This document shows positions 5,914 to 60,768 of a stretch of 64,000 bases of DNA, one piece after another. How positions within the stretch are numbered: the first letter of the stretch is position 1; each line of letters opens with the position of its first letter. The position numbers and the translations under genes are program-made. This DNA comes from Trichomonas vaginalis G3. Its lineage: Eukaryota; Parabasalia; Trichomonadida; Trichomonadidae. Where the stretch lies: contig NC_067205.1 of the NCBI RefSeq assembly GCF_026262505.1, positions 6,138,001-6,202,000 on the forward strand. The letters are read 5' to 3'. The notes under the pieces are model-generated. The model did not search any database, was not told where the DNA came from, and worked only from the letters and a program-made list of their open reading frames with translations.

Positions 5914-5961
5914 AGGTGAAGTGGTGAGATCTCACCTCTTTTTTCACCTGTTTTTTCACCC
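5914..5961 (+). repeat. AGATCT-centred nested palindrome
   Basis: The core GGTGAGATCTCACC is a perfect 14-bp palindrome. An upstream GGTGAA pairs with the TTCACC words downstream, of which there are two spaced by T runs. It lies between the stops and starts of two TIR-end genes and is mirrored at 26252-26300. Confidence 0.75.
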
Positions 5962-5977
5962 TGTTGAATTCATTGCT

Positions 5978-6214
5978 TTATAACTCTCTTCCTTTCTCCA
6001 ACTCTTCTAACTTCTTCCTAAGTTTAGCAATGTTGTCCTCATGAAGTTTAATCTTTCTCAAAATTCCTTCTTTATCTAATGGTTGCTTTATCTTTCTAAA
6101 CTGAACTCTACCATCCTTCATAGTATGAATGTAAAAACCTTCTGGAATAGTTCCTGATTTAATGTATTCTACCAAAAACTTTTGTTTCATTGCTTCAGTG
6201 ACTTTAGTCGTCAT
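5978..6214 (-). CDS. Hypothetical basic coiled-coil protein, 78 aa
   Basis: ATG 6214 is preferred because the upstream extension lacks an ATG. The N-terminal half has FYIHTMKDGRVQFRK. The C-terminal half is a predicted coiled coil (about residues 45-75) rich in Lys, Glu and Leu. A near-identical 80-aa copy is at 45292 in Maverick-C, differing mainly at the last codons, where this copy runs into the inverted repeat. Unknown function; conserved next to the 106-aa TIR gene in both elements. Confidence 0.6.
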   Translation of the reverse strand: MTTKVTEAMKQKFLVEYIKSGTIPEGFYIHTMKDGRVQFRKIKQPLDKEGILRKIKLHEDNIAKLRKKLEELEKGREL

Positions 6215-6262
6215 TTCAATCAAATAAAAATTTTAATATTAAATAAAAATAACGTTATTTTT

Positions 6263-6702
6263 TCAGTAAGGAAACGCAGGAGTTTTACGATTTATTTGAG
6301 GAGTAGGTTCTGGTTTAAATGTTGGAGTCGGTTTAGGAGTTGACTTTTGAACAGGAGTTTGTACTTCCATAGGTTCAGGAGTCATTGAAGGTTTTGCTTG
6401 TGAAGGTGTTGGAGTTTGTTTAACTTCAGCTACTTCAGTATTATTTACAACATTTGCTTTATTTCTTTTCAACATCATAACTGCTCCTGCTGTAGCTAGC
6501 AAACCTAGTGGGAGACCATATCTTATATAAGGACTTTACCAAATGCTATTTTGACAGGAGCTGGTGGAACACCTAACCTTGGTGAGACTGCTCTTTGCCA
6601 TTGTGCAGCTCGTAAGAAATATTCAATAGGTGCTCCATAATCGTTTGGTAAAGTTTGTTTCACAGATGGTGAAGGTTCACGAGAGCTTGATGAAGAACTC
6701 AT
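6263..6702 (-). pseudogene. Single-pass membrane protein with Pro/Thr tail, frameshifted
   Basis: The frame from ATG 6702 reads MSSSSSSREPSPS and runs to about 6530, where one base is off. The next frame continues with a hydrophobic segment (YGLPLGLLATAGAVMM, near 6490) and a Pro/Thr/Lys-rich tail with PTP, PKPTPTF and PEPTP words ending at 6263. The layout is a short N-terminal domain, one transmembrane helix and an extended tail. It lies directly downstream of the capsid gene, so a virion membrane or minor structural role is possible. Confidence 0.5.
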
Positions 6703-6732
6703 TTATAAGCTTTAAAAATAAACGTTCATCCT

Positions 6733-8307
6733 TTATTCCTCACCGTCGTCCGTAGCTAAGTTATAGTCATCTAATCTTATTATTGGGATTCCATTAGCAC
6801 GCACCTGAATGGCAAAGCAACAATCCCTCATAAATCCAATAAGTGGCTTTGGTACGTTTTCAGTTGCTAGTTCAATAGGTCCTTTAACAGACAATTTGTA
6901 TGTTATTGGAGCAGTAGATGTTTGACCTTGCTGGAAGCAAAAGTCCACTTCAGTTGGAAAACCACATAAGAAATGTGTGTTGTCATAGCTATCCCATTTA
7001 TGTTCCACACTACCATCATCCACCAATGACCTCATAACATCTTCATTAAATCCTATCATATCATTGTTTGTATTGCAGGCGTTCGCAACCATTTCATAAA
7101 ATACAGGTCCATATGATTTTTCGGGTTCTGCAGGCATATTTCCATAAGCTTCCATGGAAAGCTGAAGATATTTAAACTTAGGGTTCTCAAAATTAACATA
7201 ATAGTTGTCTTTCTTTCTAAATAGTGCCCAAATACTTTTAACATTAATAGGCGTATAAGCTGCTGTAAATGTTGCACTTGAACTATCTGTATTCTTTGAG
7301 AATGAACCGTCCATAGGAATCCAATCCATAACTTTAACAGGAAAACATAAAGCCTCGTTTGTATAATGTTCTACAAGTTCTGTATAAATGTTAGGGTCTA
7401 AAGAGAATGACTTTGGATGAATGAAACATTCATTAAAATACATCTTTGTTCGAAATAGTTGCTGGTTTACAGTTGTAATAGTAACTGTTCCACTAGCTTC
7501 TACTGACTTCGTTATCATAGTGAATGGTTCATTCCATGGAACAAATTTATTTGTCGGTGGATTTGAATCTGAAGCAAATGCAACTTTAAGAGTTGGATTG
7601 AAAGCAATGATATCATTTACAGATATAGATGTGCATTGTAAGGCGTCGCTACTGAACTTTACTTTAAGCTGAATGTTTCCTGCAAAAGCTGGAATAAATC
7701 GAATAGCTTCTAATGGAAGGAATCTTCTAACAGGAATTCTTAAACGAAGCTTAAAATCAAATGATTTTCCTGCTGTAATTGGACCACTAACAATTTGTCC
7801 TGTTCTGCATGTTCCCGAATGACTCCATACATCTTCATGTCGAGTCTTTGAGAAAACATCTACTTTCTTTATTTGTTCGGTAGTTTGTGAGTTTGAAGTT
7901 ATATATGCTTCTTCTCTTGCGTTGTCTTGAGAATATACGATACGACCATTTGCAAGGATTTGATATCCAGCAACTGCATAGAAAGCGTCATCGAAACCAA
8001 TCCAAAATCCTGGTGGGTTTGTTTTATTGGAACCTGAACCAATTTCTTTATCTACAATAAATTGACCTTCCATTTTATACGTAATGAATGTATTGTAAAG
8101 GTCCAACATATTTTCACCAGGAGGTGAGAGATTGAATGTTACCCATGTGTTATCTTTAGCAGTTCCAGGTTGTGATGGAATCTTTGCGTCAGAATATTTT
8201 CTATTAGTGTCACCAATTTGAACTGCATTGTCTATGATATCGAAATATGAGCGAATCTGATGAATATGCTCTGCTGGAGTAAATTCGTTTAACTGTTCGT
8301 TCTGCAT
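6733..8307 (-). CDS. Probable major capsid protein (double jelly-roll type)
   Basis: This intact 524-aa ORF is the largest unbroken gene of Maverick-A. It is strand-rich throughout, without long helices, and carries a PVRRFLPLEAIRFIPAF segment near residue 190 followed by alternating hydrophobic strands (GNIQLKVKF). A second block of similar character fills the C-terminal half. Polinton major capsid proteins are double jelly-rolls of 500-600 aa, and its neighbours are a membrane protein and small basic proteins, as in capsid modules. I infer the identity from size, strand pattern and context; a structure-based search would settle it. Confidence 0.6.
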   Translation of the reverse strand: MQNEQLNEFTPAEHIHQIRSYFDIIDNAVQIGDTNRKYSDAKIPSQPGTAKDNTWVTFNLSPPGENMLDLYNTFITYKMEGQFIVDKEIGSGSNKTNPPGFWIGFDDAFYAVAGYQILANGRIVYSQDNAREEAYITSNSQTTEQIKKVDVFSKTRHEDVWSHSGTCRTGQIVSGPITAGKSFDFKLRLRIPVRRFLPLEAIRFIPAFAGNIQLKVKFSSDALQCTSISVNDIIAFNPTLKVAFASDSNPPTNKFVPWNEPFTMITKSVEASGTVTITTVNQQLFRTKMYFNECFIHPKSFSLDPNIYTELVEHYTNEALCFPVKVMDWIPMDGSFSKNTDSSSATFTAAYTPINVKSIWALFRKKDNYYVNFENPKFKYLQLSMEAYGNMPAEPEKSYGPVFYEMVANACNTNNDMIGFNEDVMRSLVDDGSVEHKWDSYDNTHFLCGFPTEVDFCFQQGQTSTAPITYKLSVKGPIELATENVPKPLIGFMRDCCFAIQVRANGIPIIRLDDYNLATDDGEE

Positions 8308-8334
8308 GTATTTACTTCAGATAAAAATATCTAT

Positions 8335-8769: not shown

Positions 8770-8814
8770 TTTACATCGGTTAAAGTTTTAATTTTGTTTT
8801 TTATCTGCAGTCAA

Positions 8815-9074: not shown

Positions 9075-9098
9075 ATGGTTTATTTTTATCCGAATTAA

Positions 9099-13789: not shown

Positions 13790-13879
13790 CTTTAGTAGGA
13801 AATAAAAAAAATATTTTTGAAAAAATTAAAATAAAAATATTAAAGTTATTTTTCAAAATAATTTAATATTTTTATTTTA

Positions 13880-14353: not shown

Positions 14354-14685
14354 GCAAAAATATATTTTTGAATAACTGAGTGTCACACGTCACCATGTCA
14401 CCAGGTTAATTAACTTCTTTTAAAAATGATGACAACATGACATTTTGACAACACAGCAGGATTAATGCAAAAATGAATGTTATCGTTAATGTTATCGTTA
14501 ATGTTATCGTTTATGTTATCGTTAATGTTATCAGTGTCGAACATAATTGACGTAGGATTCATGACTTCTTCGTAAATGAGTGTAAATATAGCACAAAAAT
14601 ATATTTTAGGTGAAGAGGTGAGATCTCACCCGTTTTTTCACCTCTTTTTTCACCTCATTCTCTTTTCGTTAATGTTGTCGTGACT
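14354..14685. repeat. Gene-free spacer with 12-bp tandem repeat and dyad
   Basis: Positions 14473-14532 hold five copies of GTTAATGTTATC (one with TTT). Positions 14376-14459 match 51917-51995 of Maverick-C at moderate identity. Positions 14560-14610 read like one unit of the long Maverick-C array (TTCATGACTTCTTCGTAAATGAGTG), directly followed by the AGATCT dyad at 14608-14655. This spacer is probably the ancestor of the Maverick-C array. Confidence 0.7.
14608..14655 (+). repeat. AGATCT-centred nested palindrome
   Basis: GGTGAAGAGGTGAGATCTCACC is followed by two T-run-spaced TTCACCTC words. It lies between the hypothetical gene ending at 14353 and the KilA-N gene ending at 14686, marking the left edge of the accessory block 14.7-17.4 kb. 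Confidence 0.75.
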
Positions 14686-15512
14686 TCATTCTTCCTCTTT
14701 GAAGTTATCGAAATATTCTGTTATTTTTTCCTTCAGTAATGTTAAGTCTTCTTTGAATGTAAGTATTGTGCAACCTTTGATGTCATAGTGTGTTTGAGGA
14801 AGAGTATTTTTGACAATTTCCTTTATTTGCTCATTCGGTGTCATTGAAATCGGTAAGTTTTCACGATAGAACCAGTTTCTGTCAGATTTATATATTTTAG
14901 CTAAGTCATAAAAGCTCTTGTTGTTTCTTCTGACTAAATGCAACATAACCATATCTTTATCTTCTTCTTTCTCCAATTCTTCAGTATATATCATATACTA
15001 TAACTCTTTTCCTTTCCTTTTGGTACTGAACGCGGTATTCTTTTCTGTATGCTTTTGTCTTTGGATTCAATGACTTCATCTTTTGCTTGAAGTTTCTTTT
15101 CCATCTCTCCACGTTCTGCTTTATATAGTTCATCTAACATCATGAAAATATAACAAGCATAACGAGGTGAAGCCCACATTGCTACAGCGTTTACTAAAAG
15201 TCTATGAACATAATAACCTTTCAAACCAGGAGCCAAATTCTTGCGATTTTCATACGGAATCTCTTCTCTCGGTTTTCCGAGGGAAGCAATCATATGAGGA
15301 AATTCTTCTAAAAGTTCTTTTGTCTGTTGGTTTTCAAACCAATGATATGCTTGCTTTGTAGAACGAAGAGCATTCATTATACTTTGCATTTGGTACATGT
15401 CATCTTTGACTGAACGAATGAGACGTAACTGTTTGTTATACTGTATGTACTCGTATTCTTCATTTATGGCTTCATGAACGATAGCAGTTGTTGTGTTCTC
15501 TGATGTTGACAT
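14686..15512 (-). pseudogene. KilA-N protein with DUF3627-like C-terminus, one frameshift
   Basis: The first frame, from ATG 15512 to 14991, carries a KilA-N/MSV199-type DNA-binding domain, with a GYYVHRLLVNAVAMWASPRYA block and then YIFMMLDELY near residues 110-140. A coiled linker and the RIPRSVPKGK motif follow. A one-base shift near 15000 moves to the frame ending at 14686, with MLHLVRRNNKSFYDLA and WFYRENLPISMTPNEQ, the pattern of the DUF3627 tail found after this domain in large DNA viruses. It is probably a DNA-binding accessory protein. A 120-bp piece of this gene is copied into Maverick-C at 51540 and 60388. Confidence 0.7.
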
Positions 15513-15599
15513 TACTGTCTTTACATACAAATAAAAAAATAAATAAAAATAAAACTAACTTTATTTTCTGACTTTCACAAAAGACCAAAAATAAACGCT

Positions 15600-16211
15600 T
15601 TACATGTATTTTTCAGCAACTTCGTCAAATAATTTTATAGCTTTATCTATCTCATCTACTTCAAACGTTTCTTTACCTTTCGTGGGAGCACCATACATTT
15701 TCTCAAAAACTTCAAGCAGTTCTGTTTCAGCAGCTCTCATATCATTAACAAACACAACCTTGACTCTATTGACTGTACTGTCATATCTTTGAGTTATATT
15801 ATATGTCCTTCCTATCTTATATCTTTTTGTGTTGAAGTCCTTCGGTTTCTGAACGATGTAAAGTAAGCCTTCACTGCAACGTTCCGTATCGAATGAACCA
15901 TATGTTATGAAGTTATATCCAACAACTGGGTCTAACCATAACAAAACTATTGGTATAAGACTTTTGTCTATAAGATATGCTCTTGTTCCATGAAATGCTA
16001 CTGATATCATAAGCTCAGGATTTCTTGTCAAAATTTTCTGAGTTGAAGCATTTCTAACCCAGTCGTTTGTTTTCTTTCCAGATGGAGATATAATGTCTGA
16101 CAAAGAATATTTGTTGTATTTCTTTGAGTATCTTACGTTTAAATCACCTATTCTAACCACTTTGGTGTCATTGTCTATCTTTCTAACTGTTTCAAACTCA
16201 ATGTTTGTCAT
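15600..16211 (-). CDS. KilA-N/T5orf172 (GIY-YIG-like) protein
   Basis: ATG 16211 gives about 203 aa. The N-terminal half is KilA-N-like (SKKYNKYSLSDIISPSGKKT..WVRNAST, then IDKSLIPIVLLWLDPVVGYNF). The C-terminal half has LYIVQ (116-121), then YKIGRT (131-136), then a run to ETELLEVFE, the T5orf172 GIY-YIG arrangement. KilA-N plus T5orf172 fusions are known from phages and large DNA viruses. The pre-start sequence TATGTAAAGACAGTAATG is identical to that of the gene starting at 15512, so the two are tandem paralogues with a duplicated leader. Confidence 0.75.
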   Translation of the reverse strand: MTNIEFETVRKIDNDTKVVRIGDLNVRYSKKYNKYSLSDIISPSGKKTNDWVRNASTQKILTRNPELMISVAFHGTRAYLIDKSLIPIVLLWLDPVVGYNFITYGSFDTERCSEGLLYIVQKPKDFNTKRYKIGRTYNITQRYDSTVNRVKVVFVNDMRAAETELLEVFEKMYGAPTKGKETFEVDEIDKAIKLFDEVAEKYM

Positions 16212-16320
16212 TACTGTCTTTACATACAAAATAAAAAAATAAATAAAAATAAAATTAGCGTTATTTTTCTAACTAATGAAATTCATTATTTTTGTGCTGA
16301 ATTCAATAAAAATAATTTTT

Positions 16321-16390
16321 AGGTGAAGAGGTGAGATCTCACCTTTTTTTCACCTAATTTTTCACCTCTTTTTTCACCTCTTTTTTCACA
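16321..16390 (+). repeat. AGATCT-centred nested palindrome, extended copy
   Basis: GGTGAAGAGGTGAGATCTCACC is followed by four TTCACC words spaced by T runs, the most in any single copy. It separates the KilA-N gene start (16211) from the gene ending at 16481. With the inverted copy at 17426-17474 it brackets one gene like a cassette. Confidence 0.75.
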
Positions 16391-16484
16391 AGCGTTTTAC
16401 ATGAATTGTACGATGTATATTTGAAATCCTAAACAATTTCGTAGCTTCAATTTCTTCTTTTAGTACATCGAATGTTTTAATCAT
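16386..16484 (-). CDS. Possible 32-aa ORF or C-terminal extension
   Basis: ATG 16484 overlaps the TGA of the upstream frame as ATGA and opens 32 codons (MIKTFDVLKEEIEATK...) to a TGA inside the dyad. Given the many one-base shifts here, it may instead be the true C-terminus of the gene at 16481-17325. Either way the frame looks coding-like, helical and basic. Confidence 0.3.
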   Translation of the reverse strand: MIKTFDVLKEEIEATKLFRISNIHRTIHVKRL

Positions 16485-17325
16485 GCCGAAAGTTCTTTAT
16501 ATTTCTTCTTGACGTCAGACAGAAGGAAATCTTCTGCAGTTGGATAGTTTTTGTTCAGAAATGTCAACATATCCATTTTATCTTCTGCTGGCTTTTCTGC
16601 TTCTTTCTTTAAGTCTGCATAGTCGTTTCGCATTCTTTCTATCTCTTTGACTGAGTAGTTATATTTTCTTATTGCTGCTTTACATTTTGAACATTGCGGA
16701 TTCATTTTTGCGTTATACATTGAAATAAAACCAGCTAGAACAACTAAGGCGTCAATGGTTTTCTTTAACTCAAAAGCTGCTGGTTTTAACTGTTCATGCC
16801 ATACCTTACCTCTTCTATCTTTATCTCTTATTTCCCAAACACATTTTGCAACTAATGAAACAAAGTTATCGTATGTCTTAAACTCCACCGATTTATATAT
16901 GTCAGAAATTTTTTATAAACCATGTCGCAATCTTTGTCCATAACTTTATGGTTGCAATGATATCCTAGAAACTCATAATTTACTTTACGTATGAATTTCT
17001 TTATTTCTACTGAGTCAGTTGGTTTCACTTCTATTTCGTCGAATTCAGGAATAGTTAGTTTTTGCTGTTGGATTTCAGGCAATTTGGGTAAATGGTCAAT
17101 AATGTCCTGCATTTCATAAAGATACTGTTCATTTGTTTCATCTTTCGCACTACAGTCTAAATTACTTGTTAAAAGTTCTTGCTTTATCTTCTGGATTTCT
17201 GTTTCAAAAGTATATGAAGAAGGAATAAAGCTTTTCATCTCTACCAACATTGACGTAGGATTCATGACTAGCGAGTTTGGTGCTGTAGTTGTTTGAATTG
17301 TTGTTGTGCCGATTGTTGAAATCAT
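16481..17325 (-). pseudogene. Hypothetical protein with CxxC motif, one frameshift
   Basis: From ATG 17325 the first frame has a Thr-rich N-terminus (TTTIQTTTAP) and a helical region with a His/Cys pair (YHCNHK). A one-base shift near 16885 moves to a frame with CSKCKAAIRKY near 16680 and ending at 16481. CxxC plus HxxxH-like residues suggest a possible zinc site. The family is unknown. It is bracketed by inverted dyads at 16321 and 17426. Confidence 0.5.
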
Positions 17326-17425
17326 ATCTTTTATACAAAATAAAAAAATAAATAAAAATAAAACTAACTTTATTTTTCTATCTTAAGGAAATTCATGAAA
17401 ATTCATCTAAAATTGCTAAGCGGTG

Positions 17426-17474
17426 AGGGTGAAAAAAGAGGTGAAAAAACGGGTGAGATCTCACCTCTTCACCT
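17426..17474 (-). repeat. AGATCT-centred nested palindrome, inverted copy
   Basis: This is the reverse orientation of the copies at 5914, 14608 and 16321, with core GGTGAGATCTCACC and two T-run-spaced TTCACC words. From here to the right end of Maverick-A the dyads are inverted relative to the left part. The upstream 17371-17405 matches the window start (1-31). Confidence 0.75.
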
Positions 17475-17575
17475 AAAATATATTTTTGGTGTAAATTTAT
17501 GACAAAAATAAATGGTACCATTAATGATATCATGACTGTTCTCATTCATGTCTGATTTACATCTAATGAAAAAGT

Positions 17576-26244: not shown

Positions 26245-26251
26245 ATTCAAC

Positions 26252-26300
26252 AGGGTAAAAAAAGAGGTGAAAAAAGAGGTGAGATCTCACCACTTCACCT
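26252..26300 (-). repeat. AGATCT-centred nested palindrome (right TIR)
   Basis: Mirror of the copy at 5914-5961. The core GGTGAGATCTCACC is unchanged. One outer word reads GGGTAAA where the left copy has GGGTGAA. Confidence 0.75.
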
Positions 26301-26389
26301 AAATATATTTTTGTGCTATGTTTTCATACGTGTGGGAGTGGTGATATCATTAATTTTTAAGTTTATTTTTTTATTTTATTTTTATATAA

Positions 26390-26710: not shown

Positions 26711-26891
26711 GAACGTTTATTTTTTCATTAGTGAGGTGAAGTGGTTGACGGCTTTGTAAATATTTAAGGTTAAGTTAGTGTTGTCGTTTGTGTTGTAAAA
26801 TATACGTTAACGGTTTTGTAAAGTGTCAAATTCACATATAATGGGTACGGTGGAACGCAGTGCCTCTGTACCCTTGATATGTATACTAACT

Positions 26892-31622: not shown

Positions 31623-31795
31623 CAAATAATTTCAAAAACAAGAAAATTCAAAAAATCACAAAAAGGAAGTTAAGGAATAAACACTTACATTTATTACATT
31701 TGGATTTTTTTAAATTCAGTATTATTTTTAGAAATAAGATAATATAGTTCTAAATAAAACAAAGAATGTTAAGAATGAAGAAGGAATTAGCGGAT

Positions 31796-34700: not shown

Positions 34701-35226
34701 AATATCCACTCAAATCATACAAAGTTTTGTCGAATAGTTTGATATAAAGACAAAAAATTTACAATTTTTAATTAAATCCGAACAATCTTACATATGCAGC
34801 TGAAGCACACTCACAAATTACTCTCAATATCCACTCAAATCATACAAAGTTTTGTCGAATAGTTTGATATAAAGACAAAAAATTTACAATTTTTAATTAA
34901 ATCCGAACAATCTTACATATGCAGCTGAAGCACACTCACAAATTACTCTCAATATCCACTCAAATCATACAAAGTTTTGTCGAATAGTTTGATATAAAGA
35001 CAAAAAATTTACAATTTTTAATTAAATCCGAACAATCTTACATATGCAGCTGAAGCACACTCACAAATTACTCTCAATATCCACTCAAATCATACAAAGT
35101 TTTGTCGAATAGTTTGATATAAAGACAAAAAATTTACAATTTTTAATTAAATCCGAACAATCTTACATATGCAGCTGAAGCACACTCACAAATTACTCTC
35201 AATATCCACTCAAATCATACAAAGTT
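31796..35226 (+). repeat. 125-bp tandem satellite, about 27.4 copies
   Basis: The word GCAGCTGAAGCACACTCACA recurs every 125 bp from 31921 to 35171; the first unit at 31796 has GCAGCCGAAGCACGC. Units 2-27 appear identical by eye, implying recent amplification or gene-conversion-like homogenisation. The array has no ORF and ends mid-unit. It lies inside the transposon downstream of the transposase. Confidence 0.95.
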
Positions 35227-48540: not shown

Positions 48541-50473
48541 TACATTTGAACTACATGCAAAGAATTCATTCTCCTTCGCAAATTCTTTATATCTTCTGTA
48601 GCACTCTGTACAATTCCATCCGGATACAAACTTTTCATAGAACTCCTCGTAAAACATTTGGTAAGGTGTTTTGTTCATTTCGATGAGTTCTTGTTTAGCC
48701 CTGGTGAATGGTATCTTCCTTACATCAAATTCACTTAAATCTTTCTTCATGAAGTACGTCAGTAAGTTTGAATAAAACTCTTCATTAAAGCTTTCAATGA
48801 GATTTGAGAAATATTCGTAATTTCCTTTGTATCTGCTGCTTACGTCAATGACAACAAATCTTCTGTCGTCTTTGTCAATCTTTACTGAGTTGAAGTTGTT
48901 AGATATCATGATGATATTACAAACATTCTCTATCTTTCTTACTGGCTGACACTTCTGATTTAAGTCCAACTGAGTCTCTGTTACTATTGACTTTAGTGCG
49001 TCGTGGTTCATGACCTTAGACGTATCGCATGAGCTTAGTTCATTGCATACGATGAGCTTCATGTTCTCAATAGCAGCATTGAATCTACCAACCACATTCT
49101 CTATTGCCGTTATATTATTGTTGGCGTACTTGCTAATGAGCTCGCATAGAACATTACTAAGTACATTCTTACCAGTTCCTTGCTTTCCTATTAACAAAAG
49201 TACTGTTCCAGTCTTTCCACAAGGATTTTGAACGATGTAGGCGAACCAGTTCAAAACATACTCATAAAGCTCTTCATCCTCATTACATATGACATCGTGA
49301 ACATGTTTCAAATATCCTTCAATAACGTTCTCATCTACTTCATTCAGTACCTCATACTCATATCCTCTGAAATAGCTGTAAATGTCATCTCTTTCGTCAA
49401 AGAATCTCATGCCTGACTTCATAAGATAGTTCTTGTTCTGACCCGCTTCATAAATCATCAGTGCGTTCACATCCTTCTCCTCAATACGTCCTACATAAAT
49501 ACTCTTCATGAGCTTATTGAATTCCTTGCTATCTACTGACACAAGTGTTGTTGTGTCTCGTATTCCATCATAATCTTTCACTAGATATGTCATACGTGCT
49601 CCGTCAATAACGACAACACATCTTCTTAAGTCATTTATAACACTAGCTATGTCAATACCGTCCTCACTCATGTACTTATTTTTCCTCAAGTCCTTTAGTG
49701 TGAAAGTGTCTCTAAGTTCTATTTCAAGCAATTCATTTACACATCCTTTGCAATACTTCTCTATAAAATATTTCTGTCGTTCTTTACTAAGTTTCTTAAC
49801 AGCTCTGAAGAACCATGTGTTTTGACTCAAACATCCTTCACAACTTCTCTCATTCATTCCTAGTTCTTTCATGTCATTATCTTCAACCTCTATGGTCTCA
49901 TTGACTAAGGTCAAAGGGTTCTTAGTCATTGCTGGTCTTATCTGAAACAATGTTTGTGCAACAGGTTTAACTATTCAGCAACGTCCTTCCTTAATATGAA
50001 TAGCTGTTTCCACTCATCTTTGCTAACAGTTCTTTCATAACCACTGACAGTAATGATTTCATTTGCTGACCTTAGACACTTATGTTCTATCATTTGTATT
50101 GCTTTTGTGTAAGGCTTTCGTGAGCATAGGTTGTATATGTCATTCCTGCAATGTTCATTCATGCCAATAGTACTAAATCCTTTCTTTGCTGTTGAGTGCA
50201 TAATATCCATTAGTTCCTGTGTTCGTATTGCTGTCTCATAAAATACAACAAGACCTTTGTCATCTATGACGTACTTACCGAAAACATTGCTTATATTCTT
50301 TAACCATGAAATAACATCCTCATTCATGCTGTCAAACATGAAGTAAGGTCTTACATACTCTTCACTTATAAGATACTCCACAAATACTTGTTAAGCTCTA
50401 TGTCCTCGTGAGCGATTTCATTAGGTTTGATATTAGTTCCTTTTGTCATTGCTGTCATGTACTTCACTCTCAT
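48541..50473 (-). pseudogene. SF3 helicase, left-arm copy, two frameshifts and 3' disruption
   Basis: It is the same gene as 61573-63522. Relative to that copy one base is missing near 50389 and one near 49975, and the 3' end is cut by the insertion at 48541, removing the last codons. Walker A (GKQGTGKN) and downstream motifs remain. The start would be ATG 50473. Confidence 0.85.
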
Positions 50474-50573
50474 AGTTCCTTTCAATAGCGTAAAAATACT
50501 TCATTGTTTCATAACTGCTCTAAATTCTGTTCAAAATTCGTACAACATAACTTTTTAACATTAGTGAAAGAAC

Positions 50574-51277
50574 ATGAGCGAAACAACAACATCTAACATT
50601 ACAGAAGAAGTCAATGACAATGCCGATGAAAACATTACAGAAGGAGCTAGTGAAAATATTGACGAGTTCAGTGAGGAAGAAGATATTGAGGACGTCAATG
50701 AGAACGTTAGTGGGGAACAAACTCAATGGGAAACATTGAGAAATCATGAAGATTATGAGATTTGTACGACATATCCTTTTACTATTCGTCGAAAAAAAAC
50801 AAACATATTAAGAGTGAATGCTTAAATAATCATGGTTATATTGAGCTTAGTTTAAACAACAAAACACATTTAAAGCATAGAATTATTGCAGAACAGTGGA
50901 TTGAAAATCCAAACAATTTGAAAGAAATAGACCATATAAATCATGATAGAACGGACAACAGAATCTCAAACCTTCGTTGGTGTTCTAAATCTGAAAACAA
51001 TAGAAATAAAAGCAAGTATGGCGATATAGTTTATGAGTTCGTTGATGAAATATCTGACGAAGCTGTTGAAATAACAGATTATGGTAAGCATTCGTTTGAG
51101 TTCTACTACTATGTTGAGAATGAGGACGCATTCTATTATTATACAGGTCTTAACTATCGAAAACTTCATATAAACTTTACAAAAACAGGTGCTGCTTATG
51201 TTTGTATGATAGATACAGAAAACAAGAGAGTAATCTTATGCATAAACAAATTCAAACGCTTGTACGGCTTCATGTAG
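50574..51277 (+). pseudogene. HNH endonuclease, left-arm copy, one frameshift
   Basis: From ATG 50574 there is an acidic N-terminus (residues 1-60, Glu/Asp/Asn), then, after a one-base loss near 50800, an HNH_3-type domain with EIDHINHDRTDNRISNLRW (near 50930). The C-terminal domain is shared with the 106-aa TIR proteins. This copy keeps the full C-terminus (ending RLYGFM), which the right-arm copy has lost. Such nucleases resemble free-standing homing endonucleases of phages and large viruses. It is divergent from the helicase. Confidence 0.75.
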
Positions 51278-51539
51278 GACAAACATTATTTTTCAACACT
51301 AACGCCAACACGTAGGACAAACATTCATGACTAACATTACTGTATAACATAAATGTTTTGTCATGATTTCATCGTAAATGTTTTGTCATGATTTCATCGT
51401 AAATGATTTGTCAAACATGAACGTATATGTTTTGTCATGATTTCATCGTAATGAGTGTAAATGACCCAAAAATAATGTTTATGTTAGAATGTTAGATCTA
51501 ACCTCATTTCTACCCTCTTTTCTACCCTCTTGAATTTTC
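51278..51539. repeat. Start of repeat region with variant dyad
   Basis: Several CATGATTTCATCGTAAATG-type units lead to the dyad at 51488-51535. That dyad has GTTAGATCTAACC as its core and CTACCCTC words in place of CACCTC. No gene is seen. Confidence 0.65.
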
Positions 51540-51662
51540 ATACGGAATCTCTTCTCTCGGTTTTCCGAGGGAAGCAATCATATGAGGAAATTCTTCTAAA
51601 AGTTCTTTTGTCTGTTGGTTTTCAAACCAATGATATGCTTGCTTTGTAGAACGAAGAGTATT
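51540..51662 (-). pseudogene. Captured 120-bp fragment of the KilA-N gene (left arm)
   Basis: This stretch is essentially identical to 15251-15370 in Maverick-A (encoding STKQAYHWFENQQTK). It is too short to function. Its left end, TTTTCATACGGAATCTCTTC, recurs inside the array at about 53665, 53878, 54486, 54820 and 55453, so this edge was amplified with the repeats. Confidence 0.85.
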
Positions 51663-51903
51663 ATAAGGCATTTTGTGAAGAATATAACAACCGCCTGAAT
51701 TCAGACGGTTGGTTTTTATACAAAATTCACGCAGGAAAATTCTTGAGTTTTGGTTGAAAGAATACGGTGGAGCCAAAAGTGGCTCGACCTCAAAACAAAC
51801 ATTTTATGAGCTTACTAAGGCATTTATGAATGAATTCAAAGGTATTTGCATACATCCTGACCTCGTTCATTTTGTTGTTGAATTCAGCAAAAATAATGTT
51901 TAG
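51650..51903 (+). pseudogene. Decayed small gene ending FVVEFSKNNV (left arm)
   Basis: Two overlapping frames (one with EEYNNRLNSDGWFLYKIH, the other with FWLKEYGGAKSGSTSKQTFYELTKAFM) appear to be one gene with a one-base shift near 51745. No ATG start is convincing. TTCAGACGGTTG forms a short hairpin with CAACCGCCTGAA nearby. Mirrored at 60143-60395. Family unknown. Confidence 0.4.
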
Positions 51904-51979
51904 GGTAGATGGTTTTTAGGTGTCACTACGTCACCATGTGTCACTCGGTTAATGAACTTCTCTTAAAATTACTGACAAC

Positions 51980-54900
51980 ATGACATTTAGACAACAGTCC
52001 AGGAAATAAACTTCTTCGTACATGTTTTGTCGAAACTAAACGTATATGTTTTGTCGAAACTAAACGTATATGTTTTGTCATGATTTCTTCATCGTACATG
52101 TTTTGTCGAAACTTCTTCTTCGTAATGAGCGTACATGTTTTGTCATGATTTCTTCATCGTAATGAGCGTACATGTTTTGTCAAGGTTTCATCGTACATGT
52201 TTTGTCGAAACTTCTTCTTCGTAAATGTTTTGTCAAGACTTCTTCGTACATGTTTTGTCATGATTTCTTCATCGTAATGAGCGTACATGTTTTGTCAAGG
52301 TTTCATCGTACATGTTTTGTCGAAACTTCTTCATCGTATATGTTTTGTCATGATTTCTTCGTAAATGATTTGTCGAAACTAAACGTATATGTTTTGTCAT
52401 GATTTCTTCGTTTATGTTTTGTCATGATTTCTTCATCGTAATGAGTGTAAATGTTTTGTCAAGACTTCTTCATCGTAATGAGCGTAAATGACCCAAAAAT
52501 AATGTTTATGTTAGAATGTTAGATCTAACACCTTTTCTAACATGTTTTCTCACCTCATGAATTTTCATGACTTCTTCATCGTAATGAGCGTACATGATTT
52601 GTCGAAACTTCTTCATCGTAATGAGCGTACATGTTTTGTCGAAACTAAACGTATATGTTTTGTCGAAACTTCATCGTACATGATTTGTCGAAACTTCTTC
52701 TTCGTACATGTTTTGTCATGATTTCTTCATCGTAATGAGTGTAAATGTTTTGCAATATGTACCAAATGCAAAGTATTTTGACAGCATGTTTTGTCGAAAC
52801 TTCATCGTACATGATTTGTCGAAACTTCTTCATCGTAATGAGCGTACATGATTTGTCGAAACTTCTTCATCGTAAATGTTTTGTCATGATTTAATCGTAA
52901 ATGTTTTGTCATGATTTCATCGTTTATGTTTTGTCAAGGTTTCTTCGTATATGTTTTGTCATGATTTAATCGTATATGTTTTTGTCAAACATGAACGTAA
53001 ATGTTTTGTCATGATTTAATCGTAATGAGTGTAAATGACCCAAAAATAATGTTTAGGTGAAGAGATGAGATCTCACCTCTTTTCTCACCTCTTTTCTCAC
53101 CTCATGAATTTTCATGATTTCTTCGTAAATGATTTGTCAAACATGAACGTAAATGTTTTGTCATGATTTCTTCATCGTAATGAGTGTAAATGTTTTGGCA
53201 AACATGAACGTAAATGTTTTGTCATGATTTCATCGTTTATGTTTTGTCATGATTTAATCGTAATGAGTGTAAATGACCCAAAAATAATGTTTAGGTGAAG
53301 AGATGAGATCTCACCTCTTTTCTCACCTCTTTTCTCACCTCATGAATTTTCATGATTTCTTCATCGTAATGAGCGTATATGTTTTGTCATGATTTCTTCA
53401 TCGTATATGTTTTGTCATGATTTAATCGTATATGTTTTGTCATGATTTCTTCGTAAATGATTTGTCGAAACTAAACGTATATGTTTTGTCAAACATGAAC
53501 GTATATGTTTTGTCAAACATGAGTGTAAATGATTTGTCATGATTTCTTCGTAAATGTTTTGTCATGATTTCTTCATCGTAATGAGCGTAAATGACCCAAA
53601 AATAATGTTTAGGTGAAGAGATGAGATCTCACCTCTTTTCTCACCTCTTTTCTCACCTCATGAATTTTCATACGGAATCTCTTCGTAAATGTTTTGTCAT
53701 GATTTCTTCATCGTAATGAGCGTAAATGTTTTGTCATGATTTCTTCATCGTACATGTTTTGTCGAAACTAAACGTATATGTTTTGTCGAAACTAAACGTA
53801 TATGTTTTGTCATGATTTCTTCGTTTATGTTTTGTCGAAACTAAACGTATATGTTTTGTCGAAACTTCATCGTACATGAATTTTCATACGGAATCTCTTC
53901 GTAAATGATTTGTCGAAACTAAACGTATATGTTTTGTCATGATTTCTTCGTTTATGTTTTGTCAAGGTTTCATCGTAAATGATTTGTCGAAACTTCTTCA
54001 TCGTAATGAGCGTATATTGCTTTGTCGAAATTTCTTCATCGTAATGAGCGTAAATGTTTTGTCATGATTTCTTCATCGTACATGTTTTGTCGAAACTTCT
54101 TCATCGTAATGAGCGTAAATGATCCAAAAATAATGTTTAGGGTAGATGGTTAGATCTAACCTCTTTTCTCACCTCTTTTCTACCCTCATTGAATTTTCAT
54201 GATTTCTTCATCGTACATGTTTTGTCGAAACTAAACGTAAATGATTTGTCGAAACTAAACGTATATGTTTTGTCATGATTTCTTCATCGTAAATGATTTG
54301 TCATGATTTCTTCATCGTAATGAGCGTAAATGTTTTGTCATGATTTCTTCATCGTACATGTTTTGTCGAAACTAAACGTATATGTTTTGTCGAAACTAAA
54401 CGTATATGTTTTGTCATGATTTCTTCGTTTATGTTTTGTCGAAACTAAACGTATATGTTTTGTCGAAACTTCATCGTACATGAATTTTCATACGGAATCT
54501 CTTCGTAAATGATTTGTCGAAACTAAACGTATATGTTTTGTCATGATTTCTTCGTTTATGTTTTGTCAAGGTTTCATCGTAAATGATTTGTCGAAACTTC
54601 TTCATCGTAATGAGCGTATATTGCTTTGTCGAAACTTCTTCATCGTAATGAGCGTAAATGTTTTGTCATGATTTCTTCATCGTACATGTTTTGTCGAAAC
54701 TAAACGTATATGTTTTGTCGAAACTAAACGTATATGTTTTGTCATGATTTCTTCGTTTATGTTTTGTCGAAACTAAACGTATATGTTTTGTCGAAACTTC
54801 ATCGTACATGAATTTTCATACGGAATCTCTTCGTAAATGATTTGTCGAAACTAAACGTATATGTTTTGTCATGATTTCTTCGTTTATGTTTTGTCAAGGT

Positions 54901-56625
54901 TTCATCGTAAATGATTTGTCGAAACTTCTTCATCGTAATGAGCGTATATTGCTTTGTCGAAACTTCTTCATCGTAATGAGCGTAAATGTTTTGTCATGAT
55001 TTCTTCATCGTACATGTTTTGTCGAAACTTCTTCATCGTAATGAGCGTAAATGATCCAAAAATAATGTTTAGGGTAGATGGTTAGATCTAACCTCTTTTC
55101 TCACCTCTTTTCTACCCTCATTGAATTTTCATGATTTCTTCATCGTACATGTTTTGTCGAAACTAAACGTATATGTTTTGTCGAAACTTCTTCGTACATG
55201 TTTTGTCATGATTTCTTCGTAAATGATTTGTCGAAACTTCTTCATCGTAATGAGCGTATATTGCTTTATCGAAACTTCTTCATCGTAATGAGCGTAAATG
55301 TTTTGTCATGATTTCTTCATCGTACATGTTTTGTCGAAACTAAACGTATATGTTTTGTCGAAACTAAACGTATATGTTTTGTCATGATTTCTTTGTTTAT
55401 GTTTTGTCGAAACTAAACGTATATGTTTTGTCGAAACTTCATCGTACATGAATTTTCATACGGAATCTCTTCGTAAATGATTTGTCGAAACTAAACGTAT
55501 ATGTTTTGTCATGATTTCTTCGTTTATGTTTTGTCAAGGTTTCATCGTAAATGATTTGTCGAAACTTCTTCATCGTAATGAGCGTATATTGCTTTGTCGA
55601 AACTTCTTCATCGTAATGAGCGTAAATGTTTTGTCATGATTTCTTCATCGTAAATGATTTGTCATGATTTCTTCATCGTAATGAGCGTAAATGATCCAAA
55701 AATAATGTTTAGGGTAGATGGTTAGATCTAACCTCTTTTCTCACCTCTTTTCTACCCTCATTGAATTTTCATGATTTCTTCATCGTACATGTTTTGTCGA
55801 AACTAAACGTAAATGATTTGTCGAAACTAAACGTATATGTTTTGTCATGATTTCTTCGTAAATGATTTGTCGAAACTTCTTCATCGTAATGAGCGTATAT
55901 TGCTTTATCGAAACTTCTTCATCGTAATGAGCGTAAATGTTTTGTCATGATTTCTTCATCGTACATGTTTTGTCGAAACTTCTTCATCGTAATGAGCGTA
56001 AATGACCCAAAAATAATGTTTATGTTAGAATGTTAGATCTAACACCTTTTCTACCCTCATTTCTACCCTCATTGAATTTTCATGATTTCTTCTTCGTACA
56101 TGTTTTGTCATGATTTCTTCATCGTAAATGTTTTGTCATGATTTCTTCATCGTAATGAGTGTAAATGTTTTGTCAAGACTTCTTCATCGTACATGTTTTG
56201 TCGAAACTTCATCGTAAATGTTTTTGTCATGATTTCTTCATCGTAATGAGTGTAAATGTTTTGTCAAGACTTCTTCGTACATGTTTTGTCATGATTTCTT
56301 CATCGTAAATGATTTGTCATGATTTCTTCATCGTAATGAGCGTAAATGTTTTGTCATGATTTCTTCATCGTACATGTTTTGTCGAAACTTCTTCATCGTA
56401 ATGAGCGTAAATGACCCAAAAATAATGTTTATGTTAGAATGTTAGATCTAACACCTTTTCTAACATGTTTTCTCACCTCATGAATTTTCATGACTTCTTC
56501 ATCGTAATGAGCGTACATGATTTGTCGAAACTTCTTCATCGTAATGAGCGTAAATGACCCAAAAATAATGTTTATGTTAGAATGTTAGATCTAACACCTT
56601 TTCTAACATGTTTTCTAACATGGAG
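51980..56625 (+). repeat. Array of about 25-bp repeats with interspersed AGATCT dyads (left arm)
   Basis: The basic unit is ATGTTTTGTC followed by GAAACTAAACGTAT, GAAACTTCTTCATCGTA or ATGATTTCTTCATCGTA, about 24-28 bp. Larger blocks (for example 54200-54650, 54650-55050 and 55300-55700) repeat as units. About ten dyads lie within, each preceded by AATGACCCAAAAATAATGTTTA or a GATCC variant and followed by GAATTTTCATGA. ORFs inside are chance openings. Confidence 0.9.
52507..56625 (+). repeat. Dyad family inside the left array (three sequence types)
   Basis: Type 1 (near 53053, 53291, 53609) has GGTGA/TCACC words around AGATCT. Type 2 (54138, 55072, 55710) has GGTAGA/TCTACC outside and GGTTAGATCTAACC inside. 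Type 3 (52510, 56010, 56428, 56573) has TGTTAGA/TCTAACA. Words on both sides change together, so folding is kept in every type. Confidence 0.75.
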
Positions 56626-56640
56626 GATTTCATTAGATAT

Positions 56641-56888
56641 AAATATTATTTGGTGAAAGTATCCTAAAAATATTTGATGGACTTTAACTAAAATAATGTT
56701 TAGGGAAGAATGTTTATATCAGATGAAACAGTAAAGTATTATATCTATTAAATCGTCTATGATGTAAATTGTGTATAGAATGAAATGAAGGAAGAATGTG
56801 TATATCTAATGAAACAGTAAAGTATTATATCTATTAAATCGTCTATGATGTAAATTGTGTATAGAATGAAATGAAGGAAGAATATTTA
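56641..56888. repeat. Spacer at the palindrome centre with an 86-bp tandem repeat
   Basis: About 250 bp that are not mirrored. GTAAAGTATTATATCTATTA occurs at 56731 and again at 56817, giving an 86-bp unit present about twice. Another TAATGTTTAGGGAAGAATG word near 56693 resembles the array's dyad leader. No gene. Confidence 0.8.
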
Positions 56889-56910
56889 TATCTAATGAAA
56901 TCCTCCATGT

Positions 56911-59900
56911 TAGAAAACATGTTAGAAAAGGTGTTAGATCTAACATTCTAACATAAACATTATTTTTGGGTCATTTACGCTCATTACGATGAAGAAGTTT
57001 CGACAAAACATGTACGATGAAGAAATCATGACAAAACATTTACGCTCATTACGATGAAGAAATCATGACAAATCATTTACGATGAAGAAATCATGACAAA
57101 ACATGTACGAAGAAGTCTTGACAAAACATTTACACTCATTACGATGAAGAAATCATGACAAAAACATTTACGATGAAGAAATCATGACAAAACATGTACG
57201 AAGAAGTCTTGACAAAACATTTACACTCATTACGATGAAGAAATCATGACAAAAACATTTACGATGAAGTTTCGACAAAACATGTACGATGAAGAAGTCT
57301 TGACAAAACATTTACACTCATTACGATGAAGAAATCATGACAAAACATTTACGATGAAGAAATCATGACAAAACATGTACGAAGAAGAAATCATGACAAA
57401 ACATTTACGCTCATTACGATGAAGAAATCATGACAAAACATTTACGATGAAGAAATCATGACAAAACATGTACGATGAAGAAATCATGACAAAACATTTA
57501 CGCTCATTACGATGAAGAAATCATGACAAATCATTTACGATGAAGAAATCATGACAAAACATGTACGAAGAAGTCTTGACAAAACATTTACACTCATTAC
57601 GATGAAGAAATCATGACAAAAACATTTACGATGAAGTTTCGACAAAACATGTACGATGAAGAAGTCTTGACAAAACATTTACACTCATTACGATGAAGAA
57701 ATCATGACAAAACATTTACGATGAAGAAATCATGACAAAACATGTACGAAGAAGAAATCATGAAAATTCAATGAGGGTAGAAATGAGGGTAGAAAAGGTG
57801 TTAGATCTAACATTCTAACATAAACATTATTTTTGGGTCATTTACGCTCATTACGATGAAGAAGTTTCGACAAAACATGTACGATGAAGAAATCATGACA
57901 AAACATTTACGCTCATTACGATGAAGAAGTTTCGATAAAGCAATATACGCTCATTACGATGAAGAAGTTTCGACAAATCATTTACGAAGAAATCATGACA
58001 AAACATATACGTTTAGTTTCGACAAATCATTTACGTTTAGTTTCGACAAAACATGTACGATGAAGAAATCATGAAAATTCAATGAGGGTAGAAAAGAGGT
58101 GAGAAAAGAGGTTAGATCTAACCATCTACCCTAAACATTATTTTTGGATCATTTACGCTCATTACGATGAAGAAGTTTCGACAAATCATTTACGAAGAAA
58201 TCATGACAAAACATATACGTTTAGTTTCGACAAATCATTTACGTTTAGTTTCGACAAAACATGTACGATGAAGAAATCATGAAAATTCAATGAGGGTAGA
58301 AAAGAGGTGAGAAAGAGGTTAGATCTAACCATCTACCCTAAACATTATTTTTGGATCATTTACGCTCATTACGATGAAGAAATCATGACAAATCATTTAC
58401 GATGAAGAAATCATGACAAAACATATACGTTTAGTTTCGACAAATCATTTACGTTTAGTTTCGACAAAACTGTGTACGATGAAGAAATCATGAAAATTCA
58501 ATGAGGGTAGAAAAGAGGTGAGAAAAGAGGTTAGATCTAACCATCTACCCTAAACATTATTTTTGGATCATTTACGCTCATTACGATGAAGAAGTTTCGA
58601 CAAAACATGTACGATGAAGAAATCATGACAAAACATTTACGCTCATTACGATGAAGAAGTTTCGACAAAGCAATATACGCTCATTACGATGAAGAAGTTT
58701 CGACAAATCATTTACGATGAAACCTTGACAAAACATAAACGAAGAAATCATGACAAAACATATACGTTTAGTTTCGACAAATCATTTACGAAGAGATTCC
58801 GTATGAAAATTCATGTACGATGAAGTTTCGACAAAACATATACGTTTAGTTTCGACAAAACATAAACGAAGAAATCATGACAAAACATATACGTTTAGTT
58901 TCGACAAAACATATACGTTTAGTTTCGACAAAACATGTACGATGAAGAAATCATGACAAAACATTTACGCTCATTACGATGAAGAAATCATGACAAAACA
59001 TTTACGAAGAGATTCCGTATGAAAATTCATGAGGTGAGAAAAGAGGTGAGAAAAGAGGTGAGATCTCATCTCTTCACCTAAACATTATTTTTGGGTCATT
59101 TACACTCATTACGATTAAATCATGACAAAACATTTACGTTCATGTTTGACAAAACATTTACGTTCATGTTTGACAAAAACATATACGATTAAATCATGAC
59201 AAAACATTTACGATGAAGAAGTTTCGACAAATCATGTACGATGAAGTTTCGACAAAACATGCTGTCAAAATACTTTGCATTTGGTACATATTGCAAAACA
59301 TTTACACTCATTACGATGAAGAAATCATGACAAAACATGTACGAAGAAGAAGTTTCGACAAATCATGTACGATGAAGTTTCGACAAAACATATACGTTTA
59401 GTTTCGACAAAACATGTACGCTCATTACGATGAAGAAGTTTCGACAAATCATGTACGCTCATTACGATGAAGAAGTCATGAAAATTCATGAGGTGAGAAA
59501 ACATGTTAGAAAAGGTGTTAGATCTAACATTCTAACATAAACATTATTTTTGGGTCATTTACGCTCATTACGATGAAGAAGTCTTGACAAAACATTTACA
59601 CTCATTACGATGAAGAAATCATGACAAAACATAAACGAAGAAATCATGACAAAACATATACGTTTAGTTTCGACAAATCATTTACGAAGAAATCATGACA
59701 AAACATATACGATGAAGAAGTTTCGACAAAACATGTACGATGAAACCTTGACAAAACATGTACGCTCATTACGATGAAGAAATCATGACAAAACATGTAC
59801 GAAGAAGTCTTGACAAAACATTTACGAAGAAGAAGTTTCGACAAAACATGTACGATGAAACCTTGACAAAACATGTACGCTCATTACGATGAAGAAATCA

Positions 59901-60040
59901 TGACAAAACATGTACGCTCATTACGAAGAAGAAGTTTCGACAAAACATGTACGATGAAGAAATCATGACAAAACATATACGTTTAGTTTCGACAAAACAT
60001 ATACGTTTAGTTTCGACAAAACATGTACGAAGAAGTTTAT
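56911..60040 (-). repeat. Array of about 25-bp repeats with dyads (right arm)
   Basis: It has the same units as the left array in inverse orientation, about 3.1 kb against 4.6 kb. Dyads of all three types occur (near 56925, 57800, 58105, 58315, 58525, 59050 and 59510). Block order differs from the left arm in 57000-58600, so the arms have been rearranged since duplication. Confidence 0.9.
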
Positions 60041-60142
60041 TTCCTGGACTGTTGTCTAAATGTCATGTTGTCAGTAATTTTAAGAGAAGTTCATTAACCG
60101 AGTGACACATGGTGACGTAGTGACACCTAAAAACCATCTACC

Positions 60143-60395
60143 CTAAACATTATTTTTGCTGAATTCAACAACAAAATGAACGAGGTCAGGATGTATGCAA
60201 ATACCTTTGAATTCATTCATAAATGCCTTAGTAAGCTCATAAAATGTTTGTTTTGAGGTCGAGCCACTTTTGGCTCCACCGTATTCTTTCAACCAAAACT
60301 CAAGAATTTTCCTGCGTGAATTTTGTATAAAAACCAACCGTCTGAATTCAGGCGGTTGTTATATTCTTCACAAAATGCCTTATAATACTCTTCGT
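60143..60395 (-). pseudogene. Decayed small gene ending FVVEFSKNNV (right arm)
   Basis: Inverse copy of 51650-51903 with the same apparent frame break, so the damage predates the duplication. No convincing start. Confidence 0.4.
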
Positions 60396-60508
60396 TCTAC
60401 AAAGCAAGCATATCATTGGTTTGAAAACCAACAGACAAAAGAACTTTTAGAAGAATTTCCTCATATGATTGCTTCCCTCGGAAAACCGAGAGAAGAGATT
60501 CCGTATGA
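60388..60508 (+). pseudogene. Captured KilA-N fragment (right arm)
   Basis: Inverse copy of 51540-51662, near-identical to 15251-15370 of Maverick-A. It is followed by a variant dyad at 60515-60565. Confidence 0.85.
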
Positions 60509-60768
60509 AAATTCAAGAGGGTAGAAAAGAGGGTAGAAATGAGGTTAGATCTAACATTCTAACATAAACATTATTTTTGGGTCATTTACACTCATTACGA
60601 TGAAATCATGACAAAACATATACGTTCATGTTTGACAAATCATTTACGATGAAATCATGACAAAACATTTACGATGAAATCATGACAAAACATTTATGTT
60701 ATACAGTAATGTTAGTCATGAATGTTTGTCCTACGTGTTGGCGTTAGTGTTGAAAAATAATGTTTGTC

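What the first reader, a model, noticed from the sequence alone, without database searches (positions are those of the whole stretch)
5914..60565. AGATCT-centred nested palindromes whose words change together
The same design occurs at gene borders in Maverick-A (5914, 14608, 16321, 17426, 26252), at the window start (32) and many times in Maverick-C: a palindromic AGATCT core, inner arms, and the same 5-7-base word repeated outside in direct and inverse orientation. Three sequence versions exist (TCACC, CTACC/TAACC and TAACA words). Within one copy nearly all words switch together, so pairing is kept while sequence changes. This is covariation, which suggests a fold (RNA 3' end or DNA cruciform) or a multi-site binder. 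In Maverick-A left-half copies face one way and right-half copies the other, and they bracket accessory genes like cassette boundaries. I know of no named element matching this.
Basis: partly seen in the sequence, partly recalled or inferred. Interest (0 to 1): 0.9.

Follow-up and report, generated by a model that had tools for sequence, protein, structure and literature searches.

The report
Hairpin gene-end modules of Maverick transposons
Short, strictly patterned palindromes, present in more than ten thousand copies in this genome, sit just behind certain genes of giant virus-like transposons and look like RNA hairpins that mark where a message ends, a role known from giant viruses but not described for these transposons in the papers found here.

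Summary
The window holds 25 copies of a ~76-base module: three direct words with a 12-base period, an abutting inverted word (which creates AGATCT), a second inverted word, then TAAA and TATTTTT. Genome-wide the core exists as three perfect palindromes (4103, 3504, 2989 copies); two kinds of mixed core are rarer (507, 528). RNAalifold returns a two-part nested hairpin, 6 of 12 pairs changing on both sides. But 19 of 67 distinct copies are mosaics, so 'all words switch together' is only partly true.

Best-supported role: a 3'-end module. In three gene families it follows the stop codon in sense orientation (23 of 26 distinct ends); five other families never have it (0 of 23) and mostly carry a bare T-rich signal like the module's tail (19 of 23). 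Reversed copies lie upstream of some accessory genes, facing outward; they do not fit a promoter and might stop divergent transcripts.

Against an RNA role: no strand bias of G-U over A-C in the inner stem, and many copies sit in ORF-poor arrays. A multi-site DNA binder is not excluded. No transcript data were available. New variant of a known kind (hairpin-marked 3' ends).

The parts
28..103 (+). module copy at window start, core GGTGAAATCTCACC (AGATCT lost)
5893..5968 (-). module, version A, behind the 78-aa gene (48 nt from stop to AGATCT)
14587..14662 (-). module, version A, downstream of ORF 14686-14994; next ORF to the left is convergent
16300..16374 (-). module, version A, at the 3' end of the (broken) DUF3839 gene
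17420..17495 (+). module, version A, upstream of the DUF3839 gene and facing away from it
26246..26321 (+). module, version A, behind the 175-aa gene (40 nt from stop to AGATCT)
51460..51535 (-). module, left words B, right words C; stop of a short KilA-N fragment lies in word 1
52487..52562 (-). module in array, word 1 version A, rest C
53034..53109 (-). module in array, version A with TCATC (G-U in sense)
53272..53347 (-). module in array, as 53034
53590..53665 (-). module in array, as 53034
54118..54193 (-). module in array, version B with word 2 of version A
55050..55125 (-). module in array, as 54118
55690..55765 (-). module in array, as 54118
56001..56076 (-). module in array, left words B, core and right words C
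56410..56485 (-). module in array, as 52487
56553..56628 (-). module in array, version C
56900..56975 (+). module in array, version C (other arm of the large palindrome)
57767..57842 (+). module in array, as 56001
58078..58153 (+). module in array, as 54118
58286..58360 (+). module in array, as 54118 but one base shorter
58497..58572 (+). module in array, as 54118
59025..59100 (+). module in array, as 53034
59484..59559 (+). module in array, as 52487
60511..60586 (+). module, as 51460
16398..17337 (-). DUF3839 gene, broken (tblastn in three pieces), between the modules at 16300 and 17420, whose tails both point outward
5491..5499 (-). bare gene-end signal TTTATTTTT just behind the 106-aa gene, which has no module
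15587..15595 (-). bare gene-end signal behind the T5orf172 gene
17504..17512 (-). bare gene-end signal behind the rve (integrase) gene, before the reversed module at 17420
26716..26724 (+). bare gene-end signal behind the right-end 106-aa gene

Best explanation
The module is an mRNA 3'-end element of these Mavericks. A transcript running through it would fold word 1 (or 2) against the outer inverted word and word 3 against the inner one, giving a nested hairpin with a GAUC loop, directly followed by UAAA, the poly(A) signal reported for Trichomonas vaginalis, and a U-rich stretch. Shown: anatomy, nested complementarity in three versions, the oriented tail, the sense position behind three gene families, and the bare T-rich signal behind most ends of families that lack the module. 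Inferred: that transcripts end there, that the hairpin acts in 3'-end formation or stability, and that reversed copies upstream of some accessory genes stop divergent transcripts from their promoters.
For: Sense module behind 8 of 8 DUF3839, 7 of 8 '175-aa' and 8 of 10 '78-aa' distinct gene ends; 0 of 23 ends of T5orf172, KilA-N type b, HNH, rve and 106-aa genes, of which 19 have a bare T-rich signal (a first, stricter count with less merging gave 25 of 30 and 0 of 29). One of the two '78-aa' misses (L035) has a module that the covariance model finds at 8110-8185. Of 24 copies with an open frame of 60 codons or more ending within 90 nt on the word side, 20 have the stop 36-48 nt before AGATCT. 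[CG][GA]TTTATTTTT follows 10 of 64 Maverick-rich ORFs without module, against 1 of 64 antisense. TAAA-N1-5-TATTTTT is kept in 3477 of 3854 version-A copies. UAAA as T. vaginalis poly(A) signal: passages of PMC6413133. RNAalifold picks the nested hairpin; 88.7% of cells paired, 75.4% in shuffles. Single-copy folding lies below shuffles on average (mean z -2.5 to -2.7 for versions A, B, C). All 13 copies with a sense ORF next on the tail side also have a sense ORF on the word side; 0 of 53 show the divergent layout a promoter would allow.
Against: No strand signature of RNA pairing in the inner stem: G-U-keeping against A-C-making transitions 54 against 37 in version A, and 21 fewer on the G-U side in version B. 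The inner stem is in only 24 of 67 single-sequence MFE folds; mixed copies have z -1.2. Half of the sample was chosen by its core, which inflates inner pairing. A looser signal, T[AT]TTTTTG, is as frequent antisense as sense behind ORFs (9 and 10 of 64). The rve gene has the bare signal at only 1 of 3 distinct ends, and 4 of 49 ends outside the KilA-N type a and polB pieces have neither signal. Three direct words are more than one hairpin needs. Reversed copies and ORF-poor arrays (51460-60586) mostly have no sense gene in front. Few independent changes. No RNA data; 25 of 38,656 TE ORFs passed the expression threshold in published RNA-Seq (passages of PMC7845603).
Confidence: 0.5

Rival explanations
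1. A multi-site DNA binding element: a Maverick or host protein binds the word as repeated half-sites (three direct at 12-bp period, two inverted), giving a regulatory or insulating node between genes. Versions reflect different binding specificities.
For: Five related words per copy, including those not needed for pairing; 12-bp phasing; copies in both orientations beside genes; no RNA strand signature in the inner stem. Maverick-A encodes a KilA-N protein, a domain I recall as DNA-binding.
Against: Does not explain the oriented TAAA-TATTTTT tail, its likeness to the bare gene-end signal, or the fixed sense position behind three gene families. Mosaic copies mix versions within one site.
Confidence: 0.23
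2. A recombination or exchange site at which accessory-gene cassettes are swapped, with the palindromic core as crossover point.
For: DUF3839 gene lies between outward-facing copies; gene order differs between loci with module junctions (window against L014); L068, L069 and 51460 switch version exactly at AGATCT.
Against: Version switches are not concentrated at the core: W1|W2 11 of 59, W2|W3 10 of 66, W3|IR 7 of 66 (3 of these fetched as mixed), IR|OR 2 of 65. Most other accessory genes have no pair of modules. No recombinase was linked to it; target-site duplications and empty sites were not sought.
Confidence: 0.12
3. Passive repeats: palindromes kept alike by template switching, slippage and gene conversion, spread with Mavericks, without function of their own.
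For: Mosaics, tandem arrays and a 15-kb palindrome show heavy local copying; few transitions in the inner stem (91 beside 3854 exact version-A copies) fit recent copies.
Against: Does not explain gene-family-specific sense placement or the gene-end tail.
Confidence: 0.1
4. A promoter or upstream element of the following gene.
For: In tandem pairs the module also precedes the next start (78-203 nt before the 106-aa gene).
Against: 14621 lies between convergent ORFs; distance to the next start varies while distance to the stop is narrow; a shared T-rich stretch next to the ATG looks like the promoter region instead.
Confidence: 0.05

Closest known systems
Hairpin rule of giant-virus mRNA 3' ends (Mimivirus, Marseilleviridae) and the same signals in the virophage Sputnik
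   Same: Palindromes behind stop codons that can fold in the mRNA, pairing kept while letters change. Passages of PMC4402537, PMC5413956 and PMC6723459 seen.
   Different: Here a defined word system in three versions, repeated direct words, a UAAA and U-rich tail, and only some genes carry it; poly(A) sites not mapped; viral RNase III or poly(A) polymerase not looked for.
Trichomonas vaginalis poly(A) signal UAAA (Espinosa 2002; Fuentes 2012, as cited)
   Same: TAAA directly behind the hairpin with a T-rich stretch.
   Different: No hairpin is mentioned in the passages I saw of PMC6413133. The primary paper PMC3370463 is not held.
Bacterial intrinsic terminator (recalled)
   Same: Hairpin followed by a T-run.
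   Different: Eukaryotic setting, TAAA and spacer between hairpin and T-run, extra direct words.
Integron attC sites (recalled)
   Same: Imperfect palindromes with variable letters at cassette borders.
   Different: No recombinase linked; version switches not concentrated at the core.

Membership tests
Giant-virus hairpin-rule 3' ends | Palindrome just behind the stop codon | tested here: met
   Met for three gene families, 23 of 26 distinct ends; not met for five others, 0 of 23.
Giant-virus hairpin-rule 3' ends | Pairing kept while sequence varies | tested here: met
   Six two-sided pairs and few mixed cores genome-wide, but only three versions plus mosaics, and 37 of 500 shuffles reach six such pairs.
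Giant-virus hairpin-rule 3' ends | Poly(A) tail added at the hairpin | not testable with these tools
   No transcript data.
Giant-virus hairpin-rule 3' ends | Viral RNase III-like enzyme and poly(A) polymerase | not tested
   18 distinct ORFs were scanned with Pfam; none matched these, which is no test of the whole element.
Trichomonas UAAA poly(A) signal | UAAA near the mRNA end | tested here: inconclusive
   TAAA present in the tail; mRNA end unknown.
Integron attC-like exchange site | Crossover concentrated at one point of the palindrome | tested here: not met
   Switches 11 of 59, 10 of 66, 7 of 66 and 2 of 65 at the four word boundaries.
Known Rfam RNA family | Match at the gathering score | tested here: not met
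   0 matches in the window.
MITE or transposon terminal repeats | Target-site duplication and empty sites | not tested
   No empty site was sought.

The most novel reading that the evidence does not exclude
Some Maverick genes carry a dedicated hairpin 3'-end code that is not the host's normal one, as virophage genes carry the hairpin signals of their giant-virus helper. The modules would then mark genes expressed by, or with, a helper giant virus of trichomonads that has not been seen, and the version differences would be the record of changing helpers.
Probability: 0.07. Interest if true: 0.9.

Novelty: new variant of a known kind. Interest (0 to 1): 0.6.

Why it matters
Mavericks make up a large part of this parasite's genome, yet how their genes start and end is not known to me. 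A gene-end code with two classes (hairpin module or bare T-rich signal) gives concrete, testable transcript borders, would help annotate thousands of elements, and connects Polinton/Maverick expression with the hairpin 3' ends of giant viruses and virophages. Not seen in print: of the papers listed by the searches (12 of 12; 12 of 33; 6 of 6; 12 of 16), no title or shown start of abstract describes it; the library lacks most subscription papers and no listed paper was read whole.

Tried and rejected
Promoter reading: disfavoured for the reasons given among the rivals. GATC methylation as the meaning of AGATCT: in the Trichomonas data of PMC12695648 (passages) 6mA prefers WATW and TAT contexts and the term GATC has 0 occurrences; AGATCT follows from the abutting words. 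Relatives in IMG/VR: 49 and 73 stretches with the 14-base cores A and B; 122 loci checked, none with two or more further marks (words, inverted words, tail) beside the core; version C was not scanned there; no DUF3839 relative there. G-U against A-C asymmetry as proof of an RNA role: no signal. Gene-end signal: three spellings were tried; two show a sense bias (13 against 2, and 10 against 1, of 64), one does not (10 against 9). The CRISPR claim for T. vaginalis (PMC10696477, passages) shows no repeat letters in what I saw, so it could not be compared. In the group totals KilA-N type a (4 ends) and polB (3, merged to 2) are left out, because these ORFs are pieces whose ends need not be gene ends; all have neither signal. 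My orientation script misread L011:1505 (degenerate tail); by its words it is in sense behind DUF3839.
Full report
WHAT THE WINDOW IS. The window is G000:C3:6138001-6202000 of a 180.85-Mb genome in 86 contigs. Genome size, Maverick-type genes (family B DNA polymerase, rve integrase, KilA-N, T5orf172) and DUF3839 make Trichomonas vaginalis the likely source; that is inference. PMC7845603 (passages) lists 4,808 Maverick elements there and 38,656 annotated TE ORFs, of which 25 exceed its expression threshold.

THE OBSERVATION. Written so that the tail is on the right, a copy reads: three direct words with a 12-base period, the third abutting its own reverse complement (which makes AGATCT), about 8 bases on a second inverted word, then TAAA, a few bases, and TATTTTT, usually with G. 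Words are GGTGA(A/G)A in version A; GGTTAGA inside and GGGTAGA outside in version B; TGTTAGA in version C. The covariance model finds 25 such copies in the window and 6 in 20 systematic 10-kb pieces of one contig; the three pieces that hold them (L034, L035, L050) also carry Maverick genes.

GENOME-WIDE COUNTS. Exact cores: GGTGAGATCTCACC 4103, GGTTAGATCTAACC 3504, TGTTAGATCTAACA 2989. Mixed cores: A with B 270+237=507, B with C 235+293=528; A with C was not counted. The hybrid palindrome TGTGAGATCTCACA: 0. The reversed-pattern control was 0 in each of these searches. So the two halves of the core are strongly coupled. These are copies, not events.

COVARIATION. On 50 of the 67 distinct copies (alignment A1; 17 were not put in) RNAalifold chose a nested hairpin, columns 8-14 with 50-56 and 34-38 with 43-47, without being told; 6 of 12 pairs change on both sides. 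With a near-identical structure given by me, 88.7% of cells pair, against 75.4% in shuffles and at most 50.8% when slid; the covariation score (0.365) is reached by 0 of 500 shuffles, but the number of two-sided pairs by 37 and the number of pair types by 417 of 500. Bias: 34 of the 67 copies were fetched by their own core pattern, which inflates inner pairing; in the 33 others the four inner pairs are all Watson-Crick in 28. The outer helix was not selected for. In version B the outer words have the GGGTAGA form on both sides (W1 14 of 17, OR 15 of 15 B words) and the inner words the GGTTAGA form (W3 18 of 18, IR 17 of 17). W1 agrees with the far outer word in 52 of 60 copies and with its neighbour W2 in 48 of 59, which favours pairing over mere neighbourhood only weakly. 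Against a simple reading: 19 of 67 copies are mosaics (10 of the 33 unselected), with switches at all four word boundaries (11, 10, 7 and 2), and coupling is strongest between neighbours IR and OR (97%).

GENE CONTEXT. After merging near-identical ends, 55 distinct ends of ten Maverick gene families are in hand: 23 have a sense module, 22 a bare T-rich signal, 10 neither (the first, stricter count was 25, 26 and 15 of 66). The split is by family: DUF3839 8 of 8, '175-aa' 7 of 8 and '78-aa' 8 of 10 with module; T5orf172, KilA-N type b, HNH, rve and the 106-aa end gene 0 of 23, of which 19 have the bare signal (3 of 4, 5 of 5, 2 of 3, 1 of 3, 8 of 8). KilA-N type a (4) and polB (2) have neither, but these are pieces. 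Copies of one family are related and are not independent tests, so the comparison rests on about eight families. The bare signal [CG][GA]TTTATTTTT follows 10 of 64 Maverick-rich ORFs without module, against 1 of 64 antisense and 2 upstream; in the systematic sample 2 of 92, 2 and 3. TTTATTTTT gives 13, 2 and 10 of 64; the looser T[AT]TTTTTG gives 10, 9 and 2, that is no sense bias. The module tail is the same kind of signal, kept in 3477 of 3854 version-A copies. Hence the module looks like a gene-end signal with a hairpin block set between stop codon and signal.

REVERSED COPIES AND ARRAYS. In front of DUF3839 a copy faces outward at 41-119 nt (4 of 5 distinct aligned starts; L011 lacks it; L013, whose start tblastn did not align, also has one). 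Such copies also precede T5orf172 in L014 and L060 (2 of 10 starts; in 5 others the module in front is a sense one) and KilA-N type b in L023 and L030 (2 of 5 starts). In several of these loci the previous gene has its own bare signal (window rve, T5orf172 in L015, KilA-N type b in L021 and L052), in others not (rve in L015 and L019). A reversed copy is in sense for transcripts running divergently from the next gene's promoter, which is my inferred reason for it. Copies at 51460-60586 lie in satellite-like repeats with few ORFs, within a 15-kb palindrome; what they do there is unexplained.

RNA OR DNA. Mean z of single-copy folding is -2.67, -2.51 and -2.74 for versions A, B, C and -1.16 for mixed copies, but the inner stem is in the best fold of only 24 of 67. 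Genome-wide, single-sided transitions in the inner stem that would keep a G-U pair in the sense RNA are not clearly more common than mirror changes that make A-C: 54 against 37 in version A, and 21 fewer in version B (3234 against 3255). In the sample, G-U cells outnumber A-C cells in the predicted stems (37 against 5; counted), but 36 of the 37 sit at two columns tied to version. The RNA role is therefore favoured by position and tail, not proved by substitution pattern.

CONCLUSION. Best reading: a 3'-end module with a nested hairpin in front of a UAAA and U-rich signal. It works like the hairpin 3' ends of giant viruses and virophages (PMC4402537, PMC5413956, PMC6723459; passages only), but membership is not shown, because no poly(A) site or processing enzyme was tested. 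The strongest rival is a multi-site DNA binder. I rate interest 0.6: the pattern is abundant and precise and no listed paper describes it in title or shown abstract, but its function rests on position.

Noticed in passing
window 48540-63508: Near-perfect palindrome of about 15 kb (arms of 1619, 1434 and more bases, 98-100% complementary in the longest pairs); outer arms centre near 56.0 kb, inner pairs nearer 56.7-56.9 kb. Two Maverick-C halves head to head, or an assembly fold-back. PMC7845603 mentions end-to-end fusions (passages).
   Followed up: partly
window 31794-35226: Tandem array of a 125-bp unit, 27.5 copies, 99% matches.
   Followed up: no
L003 and L027, behind the rve gene: The bare gene-end signal and the tail of the reversed module meet through a short palindrome centred on GAATTC (in L003 a perfect 26-bp one, TATTTTTGGTGAATTCACCAAAAATA), as if two ends were joined tail to tail.
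   Followed up: partly
L053, L054 (left of the core at 223): Between word 1 and word 2 lies an insert with two small GC-rich inverted repeats (GACCC..GGGTC and GCCGCTTAGCGGC); related letters flank word 1 in L002:2659 and L026:2649.
   Followed up: no
window 51500-51700, minus strand: A short KilA-N fragment ends with its stop codon inside word 1 of the module at 51460; its last bases resemble the flank of many array copies (ATGAAAATTCA), so the array may descend from it.
   Followed up: partly
window 56984-57763 and neighbourhood: Minisatellite of about 28 and 93 bases (TTACGATGAAGAAATCATGACAAAACAT) between module copies.
   Followed up: no
window 17320-17390 and 16200-16260, minus strand: Shared T-rich stretch (TTTTATTTTTATTTATTTTTTTATTTTGTAT) just upstream of Maverick start codons, probably the promoter region.
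   Followed up: no
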